Shown: positions 50,591-55,658 of the stretch, piece after piece
How positions within the stretch are numbered: position 1 is the first letter of the stretch
How the letters are laid out: every line of letters begins with the position of its first letter
DNA from: an uncultured bacterium
Lineage (GTDB): Bacteria > Bacillota > Clostridia > Oscillospirales > Oscillospiraceae
Reading direction: 5' to 3'
Assembly: GCA_949840775.1 (NCBI GenBank)
Contig: CATKXO010000001.1
Coordinates: forward strand, 124,001-188,000
Length of the DNA stretch: 64,000 nt
Translations under genes and position numbers: made by a program
Notes under the pieces: model-generated
Seen by the model: only the letters and a program-made list of their open reading frames with translations
Told to the model about the DNA's origin: nothing
The model's database searches: none

Positions 50591-51949
50591 GTGGGCGGCA
50601 GTCTTGCCAAACGAATAGACAGCATTTCAGACCACTATGTCCTGCTTCTCCTTGCCCTGGCCCTGATGGGGCTGACGATTGTAGGGGTTGGAGATACCCC
50701 TACGGTCTCTATGCTGGGGATTGTGCTCTGCGTGGCGGGCATTTTTCAGATGCCTGGACGGATTGATACCCGGATACTGTTCCCTATGCTGCTCTACCTT
50801 GTGGTCGGCGCGGCCTCGTCCTACGGCGCGATTGGAAACGTGACCCATACTTATACAGCCACCCACGCCATTTATCCCGTACTCTACTTCCTGATGGCCA
50901 GCCTGAAAAAGGAGGAACTGCGGTGGCTGCGGTGGTTCACTGCTGTGTGGGCGGGCTACGTGGCGGCAAACGGCATTGTCCAGTTTCTCATGAAGGCCAT
51001 GAACGGCACCGCCGGGCGGCTGGGCGGTATGATGAGCAACGCCAACTCCATGGGCATCTTCCTGGTGGTGGGCTGGTTCGGCCTGATGGCCTGGGCGCCC
51101 GGCCCGGAGGAGAAGGGGCTGATCCCGGCCCTGCTGCGCCGTCTGGAGCCCCTGCTGCTGACTGCTCTGGCCCTGACCCTGTCCATGGGCAGTTTTCTGG
51201 CCCTGGCTGTGGGCATGGCTGTCCGGGCGGCGGGCTGGGTGAAGGAGTCCGGTTGGCGTGAGGCGGCGTGGCGGAGCGCCCGGATGCTGGCCAAGGCCGC
51301 GCTGTGCGTGGGCGCGGGTATCCTGATGTACTTCACTGGGCGGCATACCAGCGCCCCTCTGCTGTGCGTGGGACTGGTCCTGTGGCTGGTGGCGCTGATG
51401 TTCCTCTGGGAGCAGTTCGACCGCTTTCTGCTGGCCTACCGGTGGTTTCCCTGGATGATGTGCGCCGGGGGCTTTGCGGTGGCTCTGGCAGCTGTAGCCG
51501 TCCGTCCCAGCGCCGCCGCCACCTTTTTGGAGCGGCTGGAGATGATGCGCAACGGAGTGGGCTACCTGACGGCTGATCCCCTGCTGGGGGTGGGCCCCTA
51601 CCAGTGGCGGGAGCTGAACCTGGCGGATGCCGATACTTACTTCAACACCTGGCACATTCACAACGTCCCCCTGCACATCGGCGTAGAGCTGGGACTGCTG
51701 GCCCTGGCGGCGGTTGTGCTGATTATTCTGCGGACCCTGCTCAAAAAGGGCCGGAACGTGGCCGGATTTGCCGCGTTTCTCCTGCACAACCTGATGGACA
51801 CCAGTTTCTTCTACATGGGCACCACCACGTCGGTGCTGTTCACGGTGGGAGAACCGGAGAAGGGCGGCAAACAGCCCAACCGGATTCTGGTCCGGGCGTT
51901 CTTTGCGGCGTTTGCCCTTGTGTTTGTCTATTTCTATTGCGTCCACTGA
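50591..51949 (+). CDS. O-antigen ligase-like membrane protein
   Basis: Membrane protein of 452 residues with about 10-12 hydrophobic segments. The Wzy_C/WaaL-type pattern is LLGVGPYQW followed by WHIHNVPLHIGVELGLLAL near residues 330-375, with Arg clusters between helices. Members of this family ligate or polymerise surface glycans. No sugar-transferase genes are adjacent, so the polymer is unknown. It lies 17 bases before the amidase gene. Confidence 0.85.
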   Translation: MGGSLAKRIDSISDHYVLLLLALALMGLTIVGVGDTPTVSMLGIVLCVAGIFQMPGRIDTRILFPMLLYLVVGAASSYGAIGNVTHTYTATHAIYPVLYFLMASLKKEELRWLRWFTAVWAGYVAANGIVQFLMKAMNGTAGRLGGMMSNANSMGIFLVVGWFGLMAWAPGPEEKGLIPALLRRLEPLLLTALALTLSMGSFLALAVGMAVRAAGWVKESGWREAAWRSARMLAKAALCVGAGILMYFTGRHTSAPLLCVGLVLWLVALMFLWEQFDRFLLAYRWFPWMMCAGGFAVALAAVAVRPSAAATFLERLEMMRNGVGYLTADPLLGVGPYQWRELNLADADTYFNTWHIHNVPLHIGVELGLLALAAVVLIILRTLLKKGRNVAGFAAFLLHNLMDTSFFYMGTTTSVLFTVGEPEKGGKQPNRILVRAFFAAFALVFVYFYCVH

Positions 51950-51966: not shown

Positions 51967-52671
51967 ATGCGCCCTAAAGAGCGGGAATTTTTAAGCATAT
52001 GGCTGCTCCTGCTGGCGCTGGGCCTGTTTGGAGTTTCGGCACTGGCGGTACGCCGGATGGACGTGCGGGGCCTGCCCGAGAACGTGAGCCGTGAGCTGAC
52101 GGCCCAGGAGCAGGCGGAGATCATCGCCCGGAACAGCCCTCTGACGGAGTACGTCCGTCTCAGCCCCAATGTGACCTTTCCCCGGGAGGATGCGGTAAAG
52201 AAGATAACCGTCCACCACATGGCGGACGACATCAGCCTGGAACGGTTGGGCGAGGTGTTCGCGGAGGAGGACAGGCGGGCCTCGGCCAACTATGCGATCG
52301 ACATAGAAGGGAGGGTGGCGCTCTATGCGGAGGAGTGTAACCGGGCCTGGACCTCCAGCAGCCCGGAAAACGACCATCAGGCGGTGACCATTGAGGTGGC
52401 CAACGACGAGATCGGCGGCGACTGGCATGTCGGTGACGCTTCCTATGCCACGCTGGTGGAGCTGTGCACAGACATCTGCCAACGCAACGGGATCGAGCAG
52501 TTGGTCTATACCGGCGACGAGCTGGGGAATTTGACCATCCACAAGATGTTCAACGAGGAGACAGAGTGCCCCGGACCATATCTGGAGGGGAAAATGCCTG
52601 AGCTCGCCCGCGAGGTGAATCAAAGGCTCGCCGAAATGGCCGGAAATAAAGGAGGTGGTGGAGGAGGATAA
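51967..52671 (+). CDS. N-acetylmuramoyl-L-alanine amidase (Amidase_2 type)
   Basis: Probable zinc amidase of 234 residues, anchored by one N-terminal helix (FLSIWLLLLALGLFGVSALA). The domain begins KITVHHMADDISLERLGEVF with the first zinc His, then ANYAIDIEGRVALY, DHQAVTIEVAND and LTIHKMFNEETECPG with the last His and Cys. It ends in a run of glycines. It cleaves the glycan-peptide bond of peptidoglycan. It lies ahead of the c-di-GMP riboswitches, with about 130 GC-rich bases between that hold several small hairpins and no clear promoter. Confidence 0.88.
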   Translation: MRPKEREFLSIWLLLLALGLFGVSALAVRRMDVRGLPENVSRELTAQEQAEIIARNSPLTEYVRLSPNVTFPREDAVKKITVHHMADDISLERLGEVFAEEDRRASANYAIDIEGRVALYAEECNRAWTSSSPENDHQAVTIEVANDEIGGDWHVGDASYATLVELCTDICQRNGIEQLVYTGDELGNLTIHKMFNEETECPGPYLEGKMPELAREVNQRLAEMAGNKGGGGGG

Positions 52672-52802: not shown

Positions 52803-52894
52803 TTGAAAACACTTGGCAAACCATCGGAAACGGTGGGACGCAAAGCCAGGAGGCTACTGTGCCCGCTTGCGGGTGCTACGCACGTCCGGTTGCA
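52803..52894 (+). promoter_or_regulatory. Cyclic di-GMP-I riboswitch (GEMM-I), aptamer 1
   Basis: The core GGCAAACC at 52815-52822 is followed by an ATCG-GAAA-CGGT hairpin with a GNRA tetraloop, then GGGACGCAAAGCC, GGCTA and, after a second hairpin (CCCGC/GCGGG), GGTTGC. These are the invariant parts of the GEMM-I class, which binds c-di-GMP. The closing helix P1 is poorly defined in this copy. Confidence 0.9.
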
Positions 52895-52978
52895 TCAGGC
52901 AAACCATCGGAAACGATGGGACGCAAAGCCAGAGGCTACAGGGCGACCTGCCGCCCCACGCTCGTTCGGTTACCGGAT
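52886..52978 (+). promoter_or_regulatory. Cyclic di-GMP-I riboswitch (GEMM-I), aptamer 2
   Basis: Second copy with GGCAAACC, a perfect CCATCG-GAAA-CGATGG hairpin, GGGACGCAAAGCC, GGCTA, a GGGCG/CGCCC hairpin and the canonical GGTTACCG end. P1 pairs CCGGT (52886-52890) with ACCGG (52972-52976), so its 5' strand lies within the 3' end of aptamer 1. A TTTGCG/CGCAAA hairpin and the ribosome binding site AAAGGTGG follow before the adhesin start at 53031. Confidence 0.95.
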
Positions 52979-53030
52979 TTATCTTTGCGTCCGCGCAAAC
53001 ACAAGCTGCAAAGAAAGGTGGATATCTATT

Positions 53031-54752
53031 ATGAAAGCACTAAAACGCATGAAAAAGACCTTCCGAAGCTTTTTGGTCTTCGCGATGGCGTTCCTGGTCG
53101 CCACATCTTCCCTCGCCACGGCTTTTGCCTCGTATGGCAGTCTTTTTGCTGAACCCCCCGAGCAGCAGACAGTGACGGTTGAGCACATCTGGGTGGACAA
53201 CGGTAATCAGAACAACACCCGCCCGGATGATGTCCAGGCGGACGTTACTGCGTCAACGGTTAAGCCCGGTACCTCTGATAAGTCTGAAACAACCAACGTG
53301 GTTCAGGTTGATAAAGACGGGAATGAAACTGGTACCACAAAGCCTATCGTGGTCGATAGGACAGAGAATATCAACTTCTCAGAAGTGGGCACCGACGAGA
53401 AAGCTCAACCCAGCGATACCATCAACGACAAAGGCTATGATAAGGGCGAAGCCGACAAAGACGAAGCCGGCAAAGACGATGTCGATGAAGACGAAGCCGG
53501 CAAAGACGATGTCGGCAAAGACGATGTCGACAAAGACGAAGCCGGCAAAGACGAAGCCGGCAAAGACGATGTCGACAAAGACGAAGCCGGCAAAGACGAT
53601 GTCGACAAAGACGAAGCCGGCAAAGACGATGTCGACAAAGACGAAGCCGGCAAAGACGATGTCGATGAAGGCGAAGCCGACAAAGACGATGTCAACAACG
53701 ACAATACCGAGGAGCCTAAAAGCGATTGGTCCATCTCTCTTGATGAGATAGAGGACCAGGATGTCAAGGATGCCATCGAGACTGTTCTTGGGACTGGGTC
53801 AAATGGTACCGATCCGATCGTGAAGGACCTTTCCGGGGACGATGTTGACAAGATCACTGGCGAGCTCTTGGATAAGCCAGCCACTAAGGATGAGAACGGA
53901 AACGTAACAGAGCCTGCCGTGAAGGACCAGGGCAACGTCTGGACCGTGTCCAAGGACTATACGGCTGAAACTGGCGAAAATGAGCATGTCACCTATCAGG
54001 TGAAGCTCCCTGAGGATACCCAGTCTGCGCTGCAAAATTCCGGTTACGATTCCGTTCAGCTGAAGGTCACCTACGAGACCGTCTTTGCTGTTAAGGACGA
54101 CACTGGAGCAGTGTATATTGATCCTTATACCGGAGAGATGCTGGATAGAGATAACAGGGTGTTAGCCATATGTCAGCATGTGTCCTATGACGGCGGTAAG
54201 ACTTGGCAGTCGGCAGGTGAGCCCAGATTCGAGCGCGCGGATGGTACCCCTTACAAGTATACTGACAAGGAGACCAATCAACAGACAGAGATGACTTGGG
54301 ATGAGTATTATGATAAGTTGGCGAAAGCGACCTACGACAGCGATACAGGCAAAGTCACGCTTGGTACAAGTAAATCAGAGGCAGAAAAAGAGCAGGTAGC
54401 CGCTACGCTGAACTATGATCCCACACGGGACTATGTCAGTGAGACCACCTATACTTTCCTGCACGTACAGAGAGACCCCGTGACGCCTCCTGATGATCCC
54501 AAGGACCCCCCGAAGGATCCCCCCAAGGATCCCCCGAAGGACCCCCCGAAGGAGGGCGAGGAAATTCCCGATCCGGAAGTGCCCCTGTCTCCCCCCGAGG
54601 AGCCCGAGGAGGTCATTGACCCCGCGGTGCCTCTGGCCAACGTGCCTGAGACCGGCGACAACTCCCATGTGTGGACCATGCTGGCCATGCTGTCCGTCAC
54701 CGGACTGCTGGGCGTAACCCTGCTTGAGCGCAAGAAGGCCAAAAACAGCTAA
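53031..54752 (+). CDS. Sortase-anchored repeat-rich surface protein (adhesin-like)
   Basis: Exported wall-linked protein of 573 residues under the tandem c-di-GMP riboswitches. The signal peptide is MKALKRMKKTFRSFLVFAMA with cleavage near AFAS. A Thr/Val-rich part is followed (residues about 140-222) by acidic 5-residue units KDEAG/KDDVD in tandem. A folded region follows (240-475; YTAETGENEHVTYQVKLPED, VQLKVTYETVF). A Pro-rich wall-spanning stretch repeats PPKD. The sorting signal is VPETG, a hydrophobic stretch and ERKKAKNS at 538-573. The adjacent class B sortase is the likely anchor enzyme. Adhesion is inferred. Confidence 0.92.
   Translation: MKALKRMKKTFRSFLVFAMAFLVATSSLATAFASYGSLFAEPPEQQTVTVEHIWVDNGNQNNTRPDDVQADVTASTVKPGTSDKSETTNVVQVDKDGNETGTTKPIVVDRTENINFSEVGTDEKAQPSDTINDKGYDKGEADKDEAGKDDVDEDEAGKDDVGKDDVDKDEAGKDEAGKDDVDKDEAGKDDVDKDEAGKDDVDKDEAGKDDVDEGEADKDDVNNDNTEEPKSDWSISLDEIEDQDVKDAIETVLGTGSNGTDPIVKDLSGDDVDKITGELLDKPATKDENGNVTEPAVKDQGNVWTVSKDYTAETGENEHVTYQVKLPEDTQSALQNSGYDSVQLKVTYETVFAVKDDTGAVYIDPYTGEMLDRDNRVLAICQHVSYDGGKTWQSAGEPRFERADGTPYKYTDKETNQQTEMTWDEYYDKLAKATYDSDTGKVTLGTSKSEAEKEQVAATLNYDPTRDYVSETTYTFLHVQRDPVTPPDDPKDPPKDPPKDPPKDPPKEGEEIPDPEVPLSPPEEPEEVIDPAVPLANVPETGDNSHVWTMLAMLSVTGLLGVTLLERKKAKNS
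53454..53695 (+). repeat. In-frame 15-base tandem repeats of the adhesin gene
   Basis: About 16 copies of a 15-base unit alternate between GACAAAGACGAAGCC and GGCAAAGACGATGTC, giving KDEAG KDDVD. Several 30-base blocks are identical, so the copy number is likely to vary by slippage or recombination. Confidence 0.92.
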
Positions 54753-54764
54753 TCAAAGTGCGGA

Positions 54765-54793
54765 CCGGGGCCTCTTATGAGGCCCCGGCTTTT
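54765..54793 (+). terminator. Hairpin between adhesin and sortase genes
   Basis: Perfect 10-base stem CCGGGGCCTC / GAGGCCCCGG with loop TTAT, followed by CTTTTG. The short T run suggests partial termination, so less sortase than adhesin would be made. Confidence 0.75.
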
Positions 54794-54818
54794 GTTCAAC
54801 CGCAAGAAGGAGGCGGCT

Positions 54819-55658
54819 ATGAAGAGAATTGTTCCCATTGCCAAGGGGTGTCTGGCCCTGCTTTTGGTGGTCAGCCTGGCGCTGGCTGCCCAGGCCAAGC
54901 GGAACCGTCTGCTGGCCCTGGAGGCCTATGAGCAGGCCAAGACGGTGGCCCGCCTGGAGGAGGAGAGCCGTCCCGCCGCCTCCCAGGGGGAGACCCCCTC
55001 CGCGCCGGCCCCGGAGGTCCCGGACGAGCCCCCGGAGGTCCCGGCGGAGCCCCTGACCACCTGGGAACGGCTGGCGCAGATCGACCTGGCCGCCCTCCAG
55101 GAGATCAACCCCGACGTGATAGGCTGGATCGAGATTCCCGGCACCACCCTCTCCTACCCCCTGGTCCAGGGCCGGGACAACCAGTATTACCTGAACCGCA
55201 CCTGGGAGGCCAAGCGCAACCCCGCCGGGTCTATCTTCGTGGACTATACGTGCAGTCCGGAGCTGGACGGCTTCCACACCATCATCTACGGCCACCGCAT
55301 GAACAACGACACCATGTTCGGCGTTTTGCAGAGCTACCGGAACCCGGATTTCTGGACGGACCACCCCAGCGTCTATATCGCCATAGAGGATGGCGTGTAC
55401 CGCTATGACCTCTTTTCCGCCCAGGAGGCCGAGGTGAAGGGGGTCGTTTACCGCCTGGACATCGTGAAAAGCGGCCTGGAGGAGGAGTTTTTCCGGTACT
55501 GCCTGGACAATGCCGTGATCAATACCCTGCTGACCCCCACGGCGGAGGACCGCATCCTCACGCTCTCCACCTGTACCGGCCGCGGCCACGCCACCCGTTG
55601 GGTGGTCCATGCCGTCCTGGCCCAGACCTATCCTGCGGGCCAGCCGGAGGACCGGTAA
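54819..55658 (+). CDS. srtB: Class B sortase
   Basis: Membrane-bound transpeptidase of 279 residues that joins a surface protein to the wall. N-terminal helix (about 6-22), a Pro/Glu-rich linker (45-75), then the sortase fold: INPDVIGWIEIPGTTLSYPL, IFVDYTCSPELDGFHTIIYG with catalytic His in YGHRMN, and LTLSTCTGRGHATRWVVHAV with catalytic Cys and Arg. The ATG at 54819 follows AAGGAGG. It lies directly after the adhesin, so the VPETG protein is its likely substrate, and it may share the c-di-GMP control. Confidence 0.93.
   Translation: MKRIVPIAKGCLALLLVVSLALAAQAKRNRLLALEAYEQAKTVARLEEESRPAASQGETPSAPAPEVPDEPPEVPAEPLTTWERLAQIDLAALQEINPDVIGWIEIPGTTLSYPLVQGRDNQYYLNRTWEAKRNPAGSIFVDYTCSPELDGFHTIIYGHRMNNDTMFGVLQSYRNPDFWTDHPSVYIAIEDGVYRYDLFSAQEAEVKGVVYRLDIVKSGLEEEFFRYCLDNAVINTLLTPTAEDRILTLSTCTGRGHATRWVVHAVLAQTYPAGQPEDR

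What the first reader, a model, noticed from the sequence alone, without database searches (positions are those of the whole stretch)
52803..55658. Tandem c-di-GMP-I riboswitches control a sortase-anchored repeat adhesin and its class B sortase
Two complete GEMM-I aptamer cores lie in series directly before an exported protein with acidic tandem repeats and a VPETG wall-sorting signal, followed by a class B sortase. Known Clostridial parallels use c-di-GMP riboswitches for adhesins; this pairing of tandem class I aptamers, acidic KDEAG/KDDVD repeats and a dedicated sortase may be a distinct attachment switch in gut Oscillospiraceae. The aptamers and motifs are seen; attachment is inferred.
Basis: partly seen in the sequence, partly recalled or inferred. 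Interest (0 to 1): 0.88.

Follow-up and report, generated by a model that had tools for sequence, protein, structure and literature searches.

The report
Stacked c-di-GMP sensors sharing one switch
Two c-di-GMP-sensing RNA elements sit head to tail before the gene of a surface protein in a Clostridia bacterium and appear to share one on/off device next to the ribosome site; relatives stack up to five such sensors on the same device.

Summary
Both c-di-GMP-I (GEMM-I) aptamers pass the Rfam cut-off (59.4 and 61.8 bits), overlap by 10 nt and precede an exported acidic-repeat protein with a VPETG motif, then a class B sortase. These parts are known kinds, and c-di-GMP riboswitches before wall-anchored proteins are known in Clostridioides and Bacillus. 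The less expected part is the architecture: the aptamer bodies are 4 nt apart, too close for two expression platforms. One conserved platform follows the last aptamer: CGGAN, CUUUGC, NUCCG, then GCAAAG fused to the Shine-Dalgarno sequence. It was found in 55 assemblies, in 44 of them after two or more abutting aptamers, up to five. CUUUGC can pair with the aptamer core or with the Shine-Dalgarno flank; CGGAN/NUCCG covaries, which suggests an H-type pseudoknot. In arrays the first aptamer is nearly always G20; the last is often A20 or C20. For the window I favour an AND-like translational OFF switch, at moderate confidence; the sign is not resolved across the set. The implied 'attachment ON' direction, the adhesin function and control of the sortase are not shown. 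A terminator-like stem separates the two genes.

The parts
52805..52897 (+). GEMM-I (c-di-GMP-I) aptamer 1; position 20 = G
   Evidence: RF01051 59.4 bits, E 1.4e-11 on 201 nt; 59.4 bits in the genome
52888..52977 (+). GEMM-I aptamer 2; position 20 = G; overlaps aptamer 1 by 10 nt in Rfam coordinates
   Evidence: RF01051 61.8 bits
52836..52845 (+). core GGACGCAAAG of aptamer 1, reverse complement of the anti-core
   Evidence: exact match, 10 Watson-Crick pairs
52919..52928 (+). core GGACGCAAAG of aptamer 2, reverse complement of the anti-core
   Evidence: exact match
52974..52978 (+). platform helix S1, 5' strand CGGAU, directly after C92 of aptamer 2
   Evidence: coordinates; CGGA follows C92 in 65 of 67 distinct platforms where it was not imposed
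52983..52992 (+). anti-core CUUUGCGUCC; CUUUGC (52983-52988) is the S2 5' strand, GUCCG (52989-52993) the S1 3' strand
53008..53013 (+). S2 3' strand GCAAAG fused to the Shine-Dalgarno sequence
53014..53021 (+). Shine-Dalgarno-like AAAGGTGG, 9 nt before ATG 53031
   Evidence: sequence; the local fold of 52971-53035 pairs part of it, -10.5 kcal/mol
53031..54752 (+). exported acidic repeat surface protein, 573 aa (putative adhesin)
53453..53702 (+). 30-nt tandem repeat encoding KDEAGKDDVD
   Evidence: Tandem Repeats Finder, 8.3 copies
54642..54656 (+). VPETG sorting motif, followed by a hydrophobic stretch and a basic tail
   Evidence: sequence; NF033073 45.5 bits, just under its cut-off of 48
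54765..54788 (+). terminator-like stem between the surface protein gene and the sortase gene
   Evidence: 10-pair stem then CTTTTGTTCA; the scan found 12 such sites against 4.2 in shuffles, this one with the longest stem
54819..55658 (+). class B sortase, 279 aa; H in TIIYGHRM, C in LSTCTG, R in ATRWVV (catalytic roles recalled)
   Evidence: TIGR03064 160.2 bits; PF04203; solved SrtB chains; motif positions

Best explanation
The leader is one translational riboswitch with two abutting c-di-GMP-I aptamers and a single shared platform. Shown by sequence: an anti-core segment (52983-52992) is a perfect 10-nt complement of the ligand-binding core of both aptamers, and its CUUUGC part also complements GCAAAG next to the Shine-Dalgarno sequence. 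Inferred: while either aptamer is empty, its core captures the anti-core and the ribosome site stays open. When both are bound, both cores are locked and the anti-core folds back on the Shine-Dalgarno flank, as a hairpin or an H-type pseudoknot beside C92, so translation of the surface protein falls. This is an AND-like, steep OFF switch. The protein is then exported and probably anchored through VPETG, perhaps by the adjacent SrtB. The same platform serves arrays of one to five aptamers in relatives.
For: Both aptamers pass Rfam. The anti-core is an exact complement of both cores; isolated duplex energy -15.6 kcal/mol. 64 of 83 platform matches follow 2-5 aptamers spaced at most 40 nt apart. 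Within such chains 116 of 127 linkers are 11 nt or shorter. Among chains in loci fetched by aptamer, 27 of 35 multi-aptamer chains carry the platform within 90 nt against 2 of 38 single ones. CGGA follows C92 in 65 of 67 platforms; the fifth S1 pair forms in 58 of 67 (UA 37, UG 13, CG 7, GC 1) against 77.6% after shuffling, p 0.0014; L1 is 1 nt in 53 of 67. Position 93 is C in 84 of 88 last aptamers but 1 of 88 first ones. In the window model the anti-core sits on a core in the empty state (0.66) and with one aptamer locked (0.46, 0.72). With both locked it goes to the Shine-Dalgarno flank (0.88) and accessibility falls from 0.42 to 0.21. Class I switches are mostly OFF in C. difficile (PMC6200980, passages). 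The genome has three full GGDEF domains.
Against: Across 63 related leaders the nested model barely changes Shine-Dalgarno accessibility (0.66 to 0.63), so the sign is not general. The locked state excludes the cores by construction. The window numbers depend on set-up: a slightly different stretch and definition gave core 0.40, flank 0.25, accessibility 0.34 in the empty state. S2 has no covariation support: it was imposed, and one array (L140) has UUUUGC and no GCAAAG. The seventh pair of the simple hairpin has no support (p 0.08). Shuffles ignore relatedness. The window's platform is atypical: L1 4 nt, L3 14 nt, and a competing hairpin in 52984-52999 (-4.8 kcal/mol). A 7-pair helix, 52884-52890 with 52972-52978, can close aptamer 2 and would use the S1 strand. 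Single-aptamer relatives carry another platform that I read as ON. No binding or expression data exist.
Confidence: 0.48

Rival explanations
1. Same one-platform architecture but an ON switch: c-di-GMP binding stabilises helix S1 beside C92, which holds CUUUGC in its loop and frees GCAAAG and the Shine-Dalgarno sequence; without ligand CUUUGC pairs with GCAAAG and hinders the ribosome.
For: S1 covaries. With aptamers locked S1 rises from 0.04 to 0.41 over 63 leaders. Some anchored adhesins are induced by c-di-GMP: Bt cap (passages of PMC4933901), C. difficile CD2831 and CD3246 through class II switches (passages of PMC6200980).
Against: The loop CUUUGC in S1 could still pair with GCAAAG as a pseudoknot. 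In the window S1 stays at 0.07 while the Shine-Dalgarno-flank hairpin reaches 0.88 in the locked state.
Confidence: 0.3
2. Two complete, independent riboswitches in series (pseudo-cooperative), as described for tandem c-di-GMP-I in Bacillus.
For: Tandem c-di-GMP-I are classed as having multiple expression platforms (passages of PMC9481103; PMC4759541).
Against: There are 4 nt between aptamer bodies in the window, so no platform fits after aptamer 1. The terminator scan shows one weak site at 52964-52978, in the end of aptamer 2, and none between the aptamers.
Confidence: 0.08
3. The second copy is a recent duplication with little added function.
For: The two window aptamers are 0.81 identical.
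Against: Adjacent aptamers elsewhere are about as different as first aptamers of other arrays (0.682 against 0.666). The position-20 order and position 93 are kept across arrays. Both window aptamers score well over the cut-off.
Confidence: 0.12

Closest known systems
Bacillus thuringiensis triple-tandem c-di-GMP-I riboswitch (Bc3-5) before cspABCDE
   Same: tandem class I aptamers before genes of surface proteins, four of five predicted to be wall-anchored (passages of PMC4759541)
   Different: there each aptamer has its own terminator platform and the switch is described as ON; here the aptamers abut and share one ribosome-site platform
Bacillus thuringiensis Bc2 RNA before collagen adhesion protein cap
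   Same: c-di-GMP-I before an LPXTG-anchored adhesin (passages of PMC4933901)
   Different: transcription terminator platform, ON
Clostridioides difficile c-di-GMP riboswitches with sortase-dependent CD2831/CD3246
   Same: c-di-GMP riboswitches control surface proteins that are sortase-dependent (passages of PMC6200980)
   Different: those two are class II ON switches; class I there are mostly OFF, one of them before a putative adhesin
Tandem glycine riboswitch (adjacent aptamers, one platform)
   Same: several like aptamers feeding one platform (passages of PMC9481103)
   Different: different ligand and fold; commonly two aptamers per platform
preQ1 and SAM-II pseudoknot riboswitches
   Same: a pseudoknot tied to the Shine-Dalgarno sequence as a translational device (preQ1 abstracts in the listing; SAM-II recalled)
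   Different: here the proposed pseudoknot is a platform after a separate aptamer, not the aptamer itself

Membership tests
c-di-GMP-I (GEMM-I) riboswitch aptamer, RF01051 | covariance-model score over the Rfam gathering cut-off (35 bits) | tested here: met
   59.4 and 61.8 bits
c-di-GMP-I (GEMM-I) riboswitch aptamer, RF01051 | ligand contacts G20, A47, C92 (numbering recalled) | tested here: met
   G20 in both; core GCAAAG in both; the last aligned base, C92, is C in both
c-di-GMP-I (GEMM-I) riboswitch aptamer, RF01051 | binds c-di-GMP | not testable with these tools
   needs in-line probing or calorimetry
Tandem riboswitches with multiple expression platforms | a complete platform after each aptamer | tested here: not met
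   4 nt between window aptamer bodies; no terminator-like site between them
[quoted passage not shown]
   anatomy only; functional coupling not tested
Sortase-anchored surface protein | signal peptide, xPxTG motif, hydrophobic stretch, basic tail | tested here: inconclusive
   seen in the sequence but both anchor models fall just under their cut-offs
Class B sortase (TIGR03064) | score over the equivalog cut-off 153.75 | tested here: met
   160.2 bits
Adhesin | a known adhesive domain | tested here: not met
   no Pfam match at E <= 0.1; middle region matches only its own genome among 400
Adhesin | measured binding to a surface | not testable with these tools
   needs an experiment

The most novel reading that the evidence does not exclude
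Oscillospiraceae, Lachnospiraceae and related Clostridia use an undescribed riboswitch architecture: one to five abutting c-di-GMP-I aptamers feed a single H-type pseudoknot platform fused to the Shine-Dalgarno sequence. All aptamers must be occupied to release the anti-core, an N-input AND gate. The last aptamer's A20/C20 variant sets the threshold or reads a second cyclic dinucleotide.
Probability: 0.3. Interest if true: 0.82.

Novelty: new variant of a known kind. Interest (0 to 1): 0.6.

Why it matters
Tandem c-di-GMP-I riboswitches are usually read as independent switches in series. A recurrent design with up to five aptamers on one ribosome-site platform, with an ordered base change at a ligand-contact position, makes an RNA AND gate testable with short transcripts and reporters. 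It also gives a simple DNA signature for c-di-GMP-controlled exported proteins in Clostridia that are probably gut dwellers (habitat recalled); the held papers gave one hit each for c-di-GMP riboswitch with Oscillospiraceae or Lachnospiraceae.

Tried and rejected
P1 of the last aptamer as the general switching strand: its near flanks are no more complementary than re-dealt pairs, and a wider closing helix averages 5.16 pairs against 5.14 re-dealt over 64 arrays; the window itself can form a 7-pair closing helix. Pairing between the 5' flank of the first aptamer and the platform: 7.77 against 7.75 re-dealt over 64 arrays. Covariation for S2: a scaffold search that left CUUUGC free gave 73 rows; the 17 with CUUUGC all have GCAAAG, the other 56 have no CUUUGC. 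Those 56 exceed the reversed-pattern control (7), and I did not test whether any lies beside an aptamer. Viral origin: 0 pattern matches in the viral collection. cGAMP as the window's ligand: both aptamers are G20 and the three full GGDEF domains read GHxxGD, so I do not favour it; the link of that motif to specificity is recalled. First aptamer counts with a regex missed 29 of 121 aptamers, and full-length model R1 lost overlapping copies; I replaced both with trimmed model R2. The Bacillota 16S tail pattern was not found in this assembly, so the anti-Shine-Dalgarno sequence is recalled. The eight multi-aptamer chains without the platform within 90 nt were counted as misses; with a looser pattern one is found within 90 nt and five more within 300 nt, and two are not found, one of them the front part of a longer array. 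My first S1 count used 86 platforms (84 with CGGA), but for those added from aptamer-fetched loci the script had required CGG; the recount without them is 67. Platform rows with no aptamer (9 of 83) were left out of the order counts; two of the nine lie in records titled Acidobacteriaceae and Bacteroidetes. Loci L127-L129, fetched for their sortases, were left out of the aptamer counts.
Full report
Check. Both aptamers are real: 61.8 bits at 52888-52977 and 59.4 bits at 52805-52897 when searched alone. They are the only two RF01051 matches at E <= 0.001 in the 2.6-Mb assembly. They overlap by 10 nt in Rfam coordinates; the aptamer bodies are 4 nt apart. The protein and sortase read as described, with the reservations given under the observation check.

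Surroundings. Upstream lie an amidase-like gene (51967-52671) and a weak O-antigen-ligase match (50591-51949; under its cut-off). Downstream of the sortase is an LL-diaminopimelate aminotransferase. No forward promoter-like site was listed between 52500 and 53031. The genome has three full GGDEF domains and two weaker matches, no EAL match and four sortase matches.

Relatives. RF01051 matches occur in 85 of 300 genomes of the family and 21 of 64 of the genus. Many leaders hold several aptamers that overlap by up to 13 nt in Rfam coordinates; one genome has five in a row. The text after the last aptamer is conserved: CGGAN, 1-4 nt, CUUUGC, NUCCG, a short loop, GCAAAG fused to AAAGG, then the start codon. 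By accession prefix these are 55 assemblies, 44 of which have the platform after two or more aptamers. Titles of the 80 loci are mostly Oscillospiraceae, Lachnospiraceae or other Clostridia; 7 say only 'uncultured bacterium', 2 only Bacillota, and 2 are off-taxon and have no aptamer. That these are gut bacteria is recalled, not shown.

Counting. I built a trimmed covariance model so that abutting aptamers are not lost to overlap, and searched both locus sets. Chains were defined by gaps of at most 40 nt. Of 83 platform matches, 64 follow two or more aptamers: 40 pairs, 17 triplets, 6 quadruplets, 1 quintuplet; 10 follow one and 9 none. In loci fetched by aptamer, 27 of 35 multi-aptamer chains have the platform within 90 nt and 2 of 38 single chains do, Fisher p 1.8e-10. 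In that set all leaders listed for the genus were fetched, while the regions from other genera were my choice for having several aptamers. Rows share genomes and ancestry, so p values are guides.

Order of aptamers. Over 88 distinct multi-aptamer chains the first aptamer has G at position 20 in 85 and A in 3; the last has A in 43, G in 31, C in 13 and T in 1. G to non-G occurs in 55 chains and the reverse in 1; by assembly, among the 44, 31 against 1 with 12 showing no difference. In the 24 chains found without the pattern, first is G in 24 and last in 7. The 46 single aptamers are G in 36, A in 6, C in 4. Position 20 contacts the ligand (recalled); A at the corresponding contact is linked to c-AMP-GMP (passages of PMC9481103; G20A in passages of PMC6274999). 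The window's pair is G,G, so it does not show this order.

Platform. In the 67 distinct platforms where it was not imposed, CGGA follows C92 in 65; the fifth S1 pair is UA 37, UG 13, CG 7, GC 1 and unpaired in 9; 58 of 67 pair against 77.6% after shuffling, p 0.0014; L1 is 1 nt in 53, 2 in 12, 4 in 2 (the earlier count of 86 gave p 0.0008). With CUUUGC in the S1 loop and GCAAAG downstream this fits an H-type pseudoknot (geometry rule recalled). S2 has no covariation support, and one array, L140, has UUUUGC and no GCAAAG. The same CUUUGC is complementary to the aptamer core, giving a choice between core and Shine-Dalgarno flank.

Folding. ViennaRNA without pseudoknots gave, over 63 leaders, core pairing 0.41 and flank pairing 0.32 in the empty state, and flank pairing 0.39 with S1 0.41 in the locked state. 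Shine-Dalgarno accessibility hardly changed (0.66 to 0.63). For the window alone accessibility fell from 0.42 to 0.21, and either free aptamer kept the anti-core (0.46, 0.72). A related set-up gave core 0.40 and accessibility 0.34 for the empty window leader. So the AND-like OFF reading rests on the window's model, not on the set.

Genes. Of 71 aptamer-linked platform ORFs, 66 have a hydrophobic N-terminal segment by a crude score; of 40 complete ORFs of 300 aa or more, 15 end in an xPxTG anchor. A SrtB-like ORF follows in 14 of 58 leader rows fetched by aptamer, the window's own included. The window protein matches 16 other genus genomes, in all listed rows through its C-terminal part (query 443-572), and its middle region none of 399 others.

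Known work. The tandem-riboswitch survey lists 347 doublets and 12 triplets of c-di-GMP-I and classes them under multiple platforms (passages of PMC9481103). A later survey finds c-di-GMP enriched among tandemly arranged riboswitches and glycine among adjacent aptamers (passages of PMC12452182). I saw no description of one-platform c-di-GMP-I arrays, of more than three c-di-GMP-I aptamers in a row or of the position-20 order in the listings of searches and the passages read. I read no paper whole, and most subscription papers are not held. In this check my odds for the best explanation went from 0.50 to 0.48, because L140 and the second window set-up weigh slightly against it.

Noticed in passing
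54765-54788: Terminator-like stem between the surface protein and sortase genes, which may uncouple the sortase from the riboswitch.
   Followed up: no
L092, L094, L098, L111, L113, L117: Single-aptamer leaders of the same genus carry a different platform, AUUUCG...GGAG...CGAAAU, which would hide the Shine-Dalgarno sequence and looks to me like an ON switch.
   Followed up: partly
L091, L093, L095, L112: Other single GEMM-I leaders of the genus end in terminator-like hairpins with U runs, judged by eye.
   Followed up: no
L145: Platform with CGGAG-CUCUUUGC-CUCCG, a compensated S1 helix.
   Followed up: partly
L140: Two-aptamer leader whose platform has UUUUGC and no GCAAAG, an exception to the rule.
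   Followed up: partly
5' flanks of first aptamers in L151-L230: Recurrent GGCGC and GGCGGG before the first aptamer, seen by eye and unexplained.
   Followed up: no
33340: A third exact GGACGCAAAG in the window, away from any listed Rfam match.
   Followed up: no
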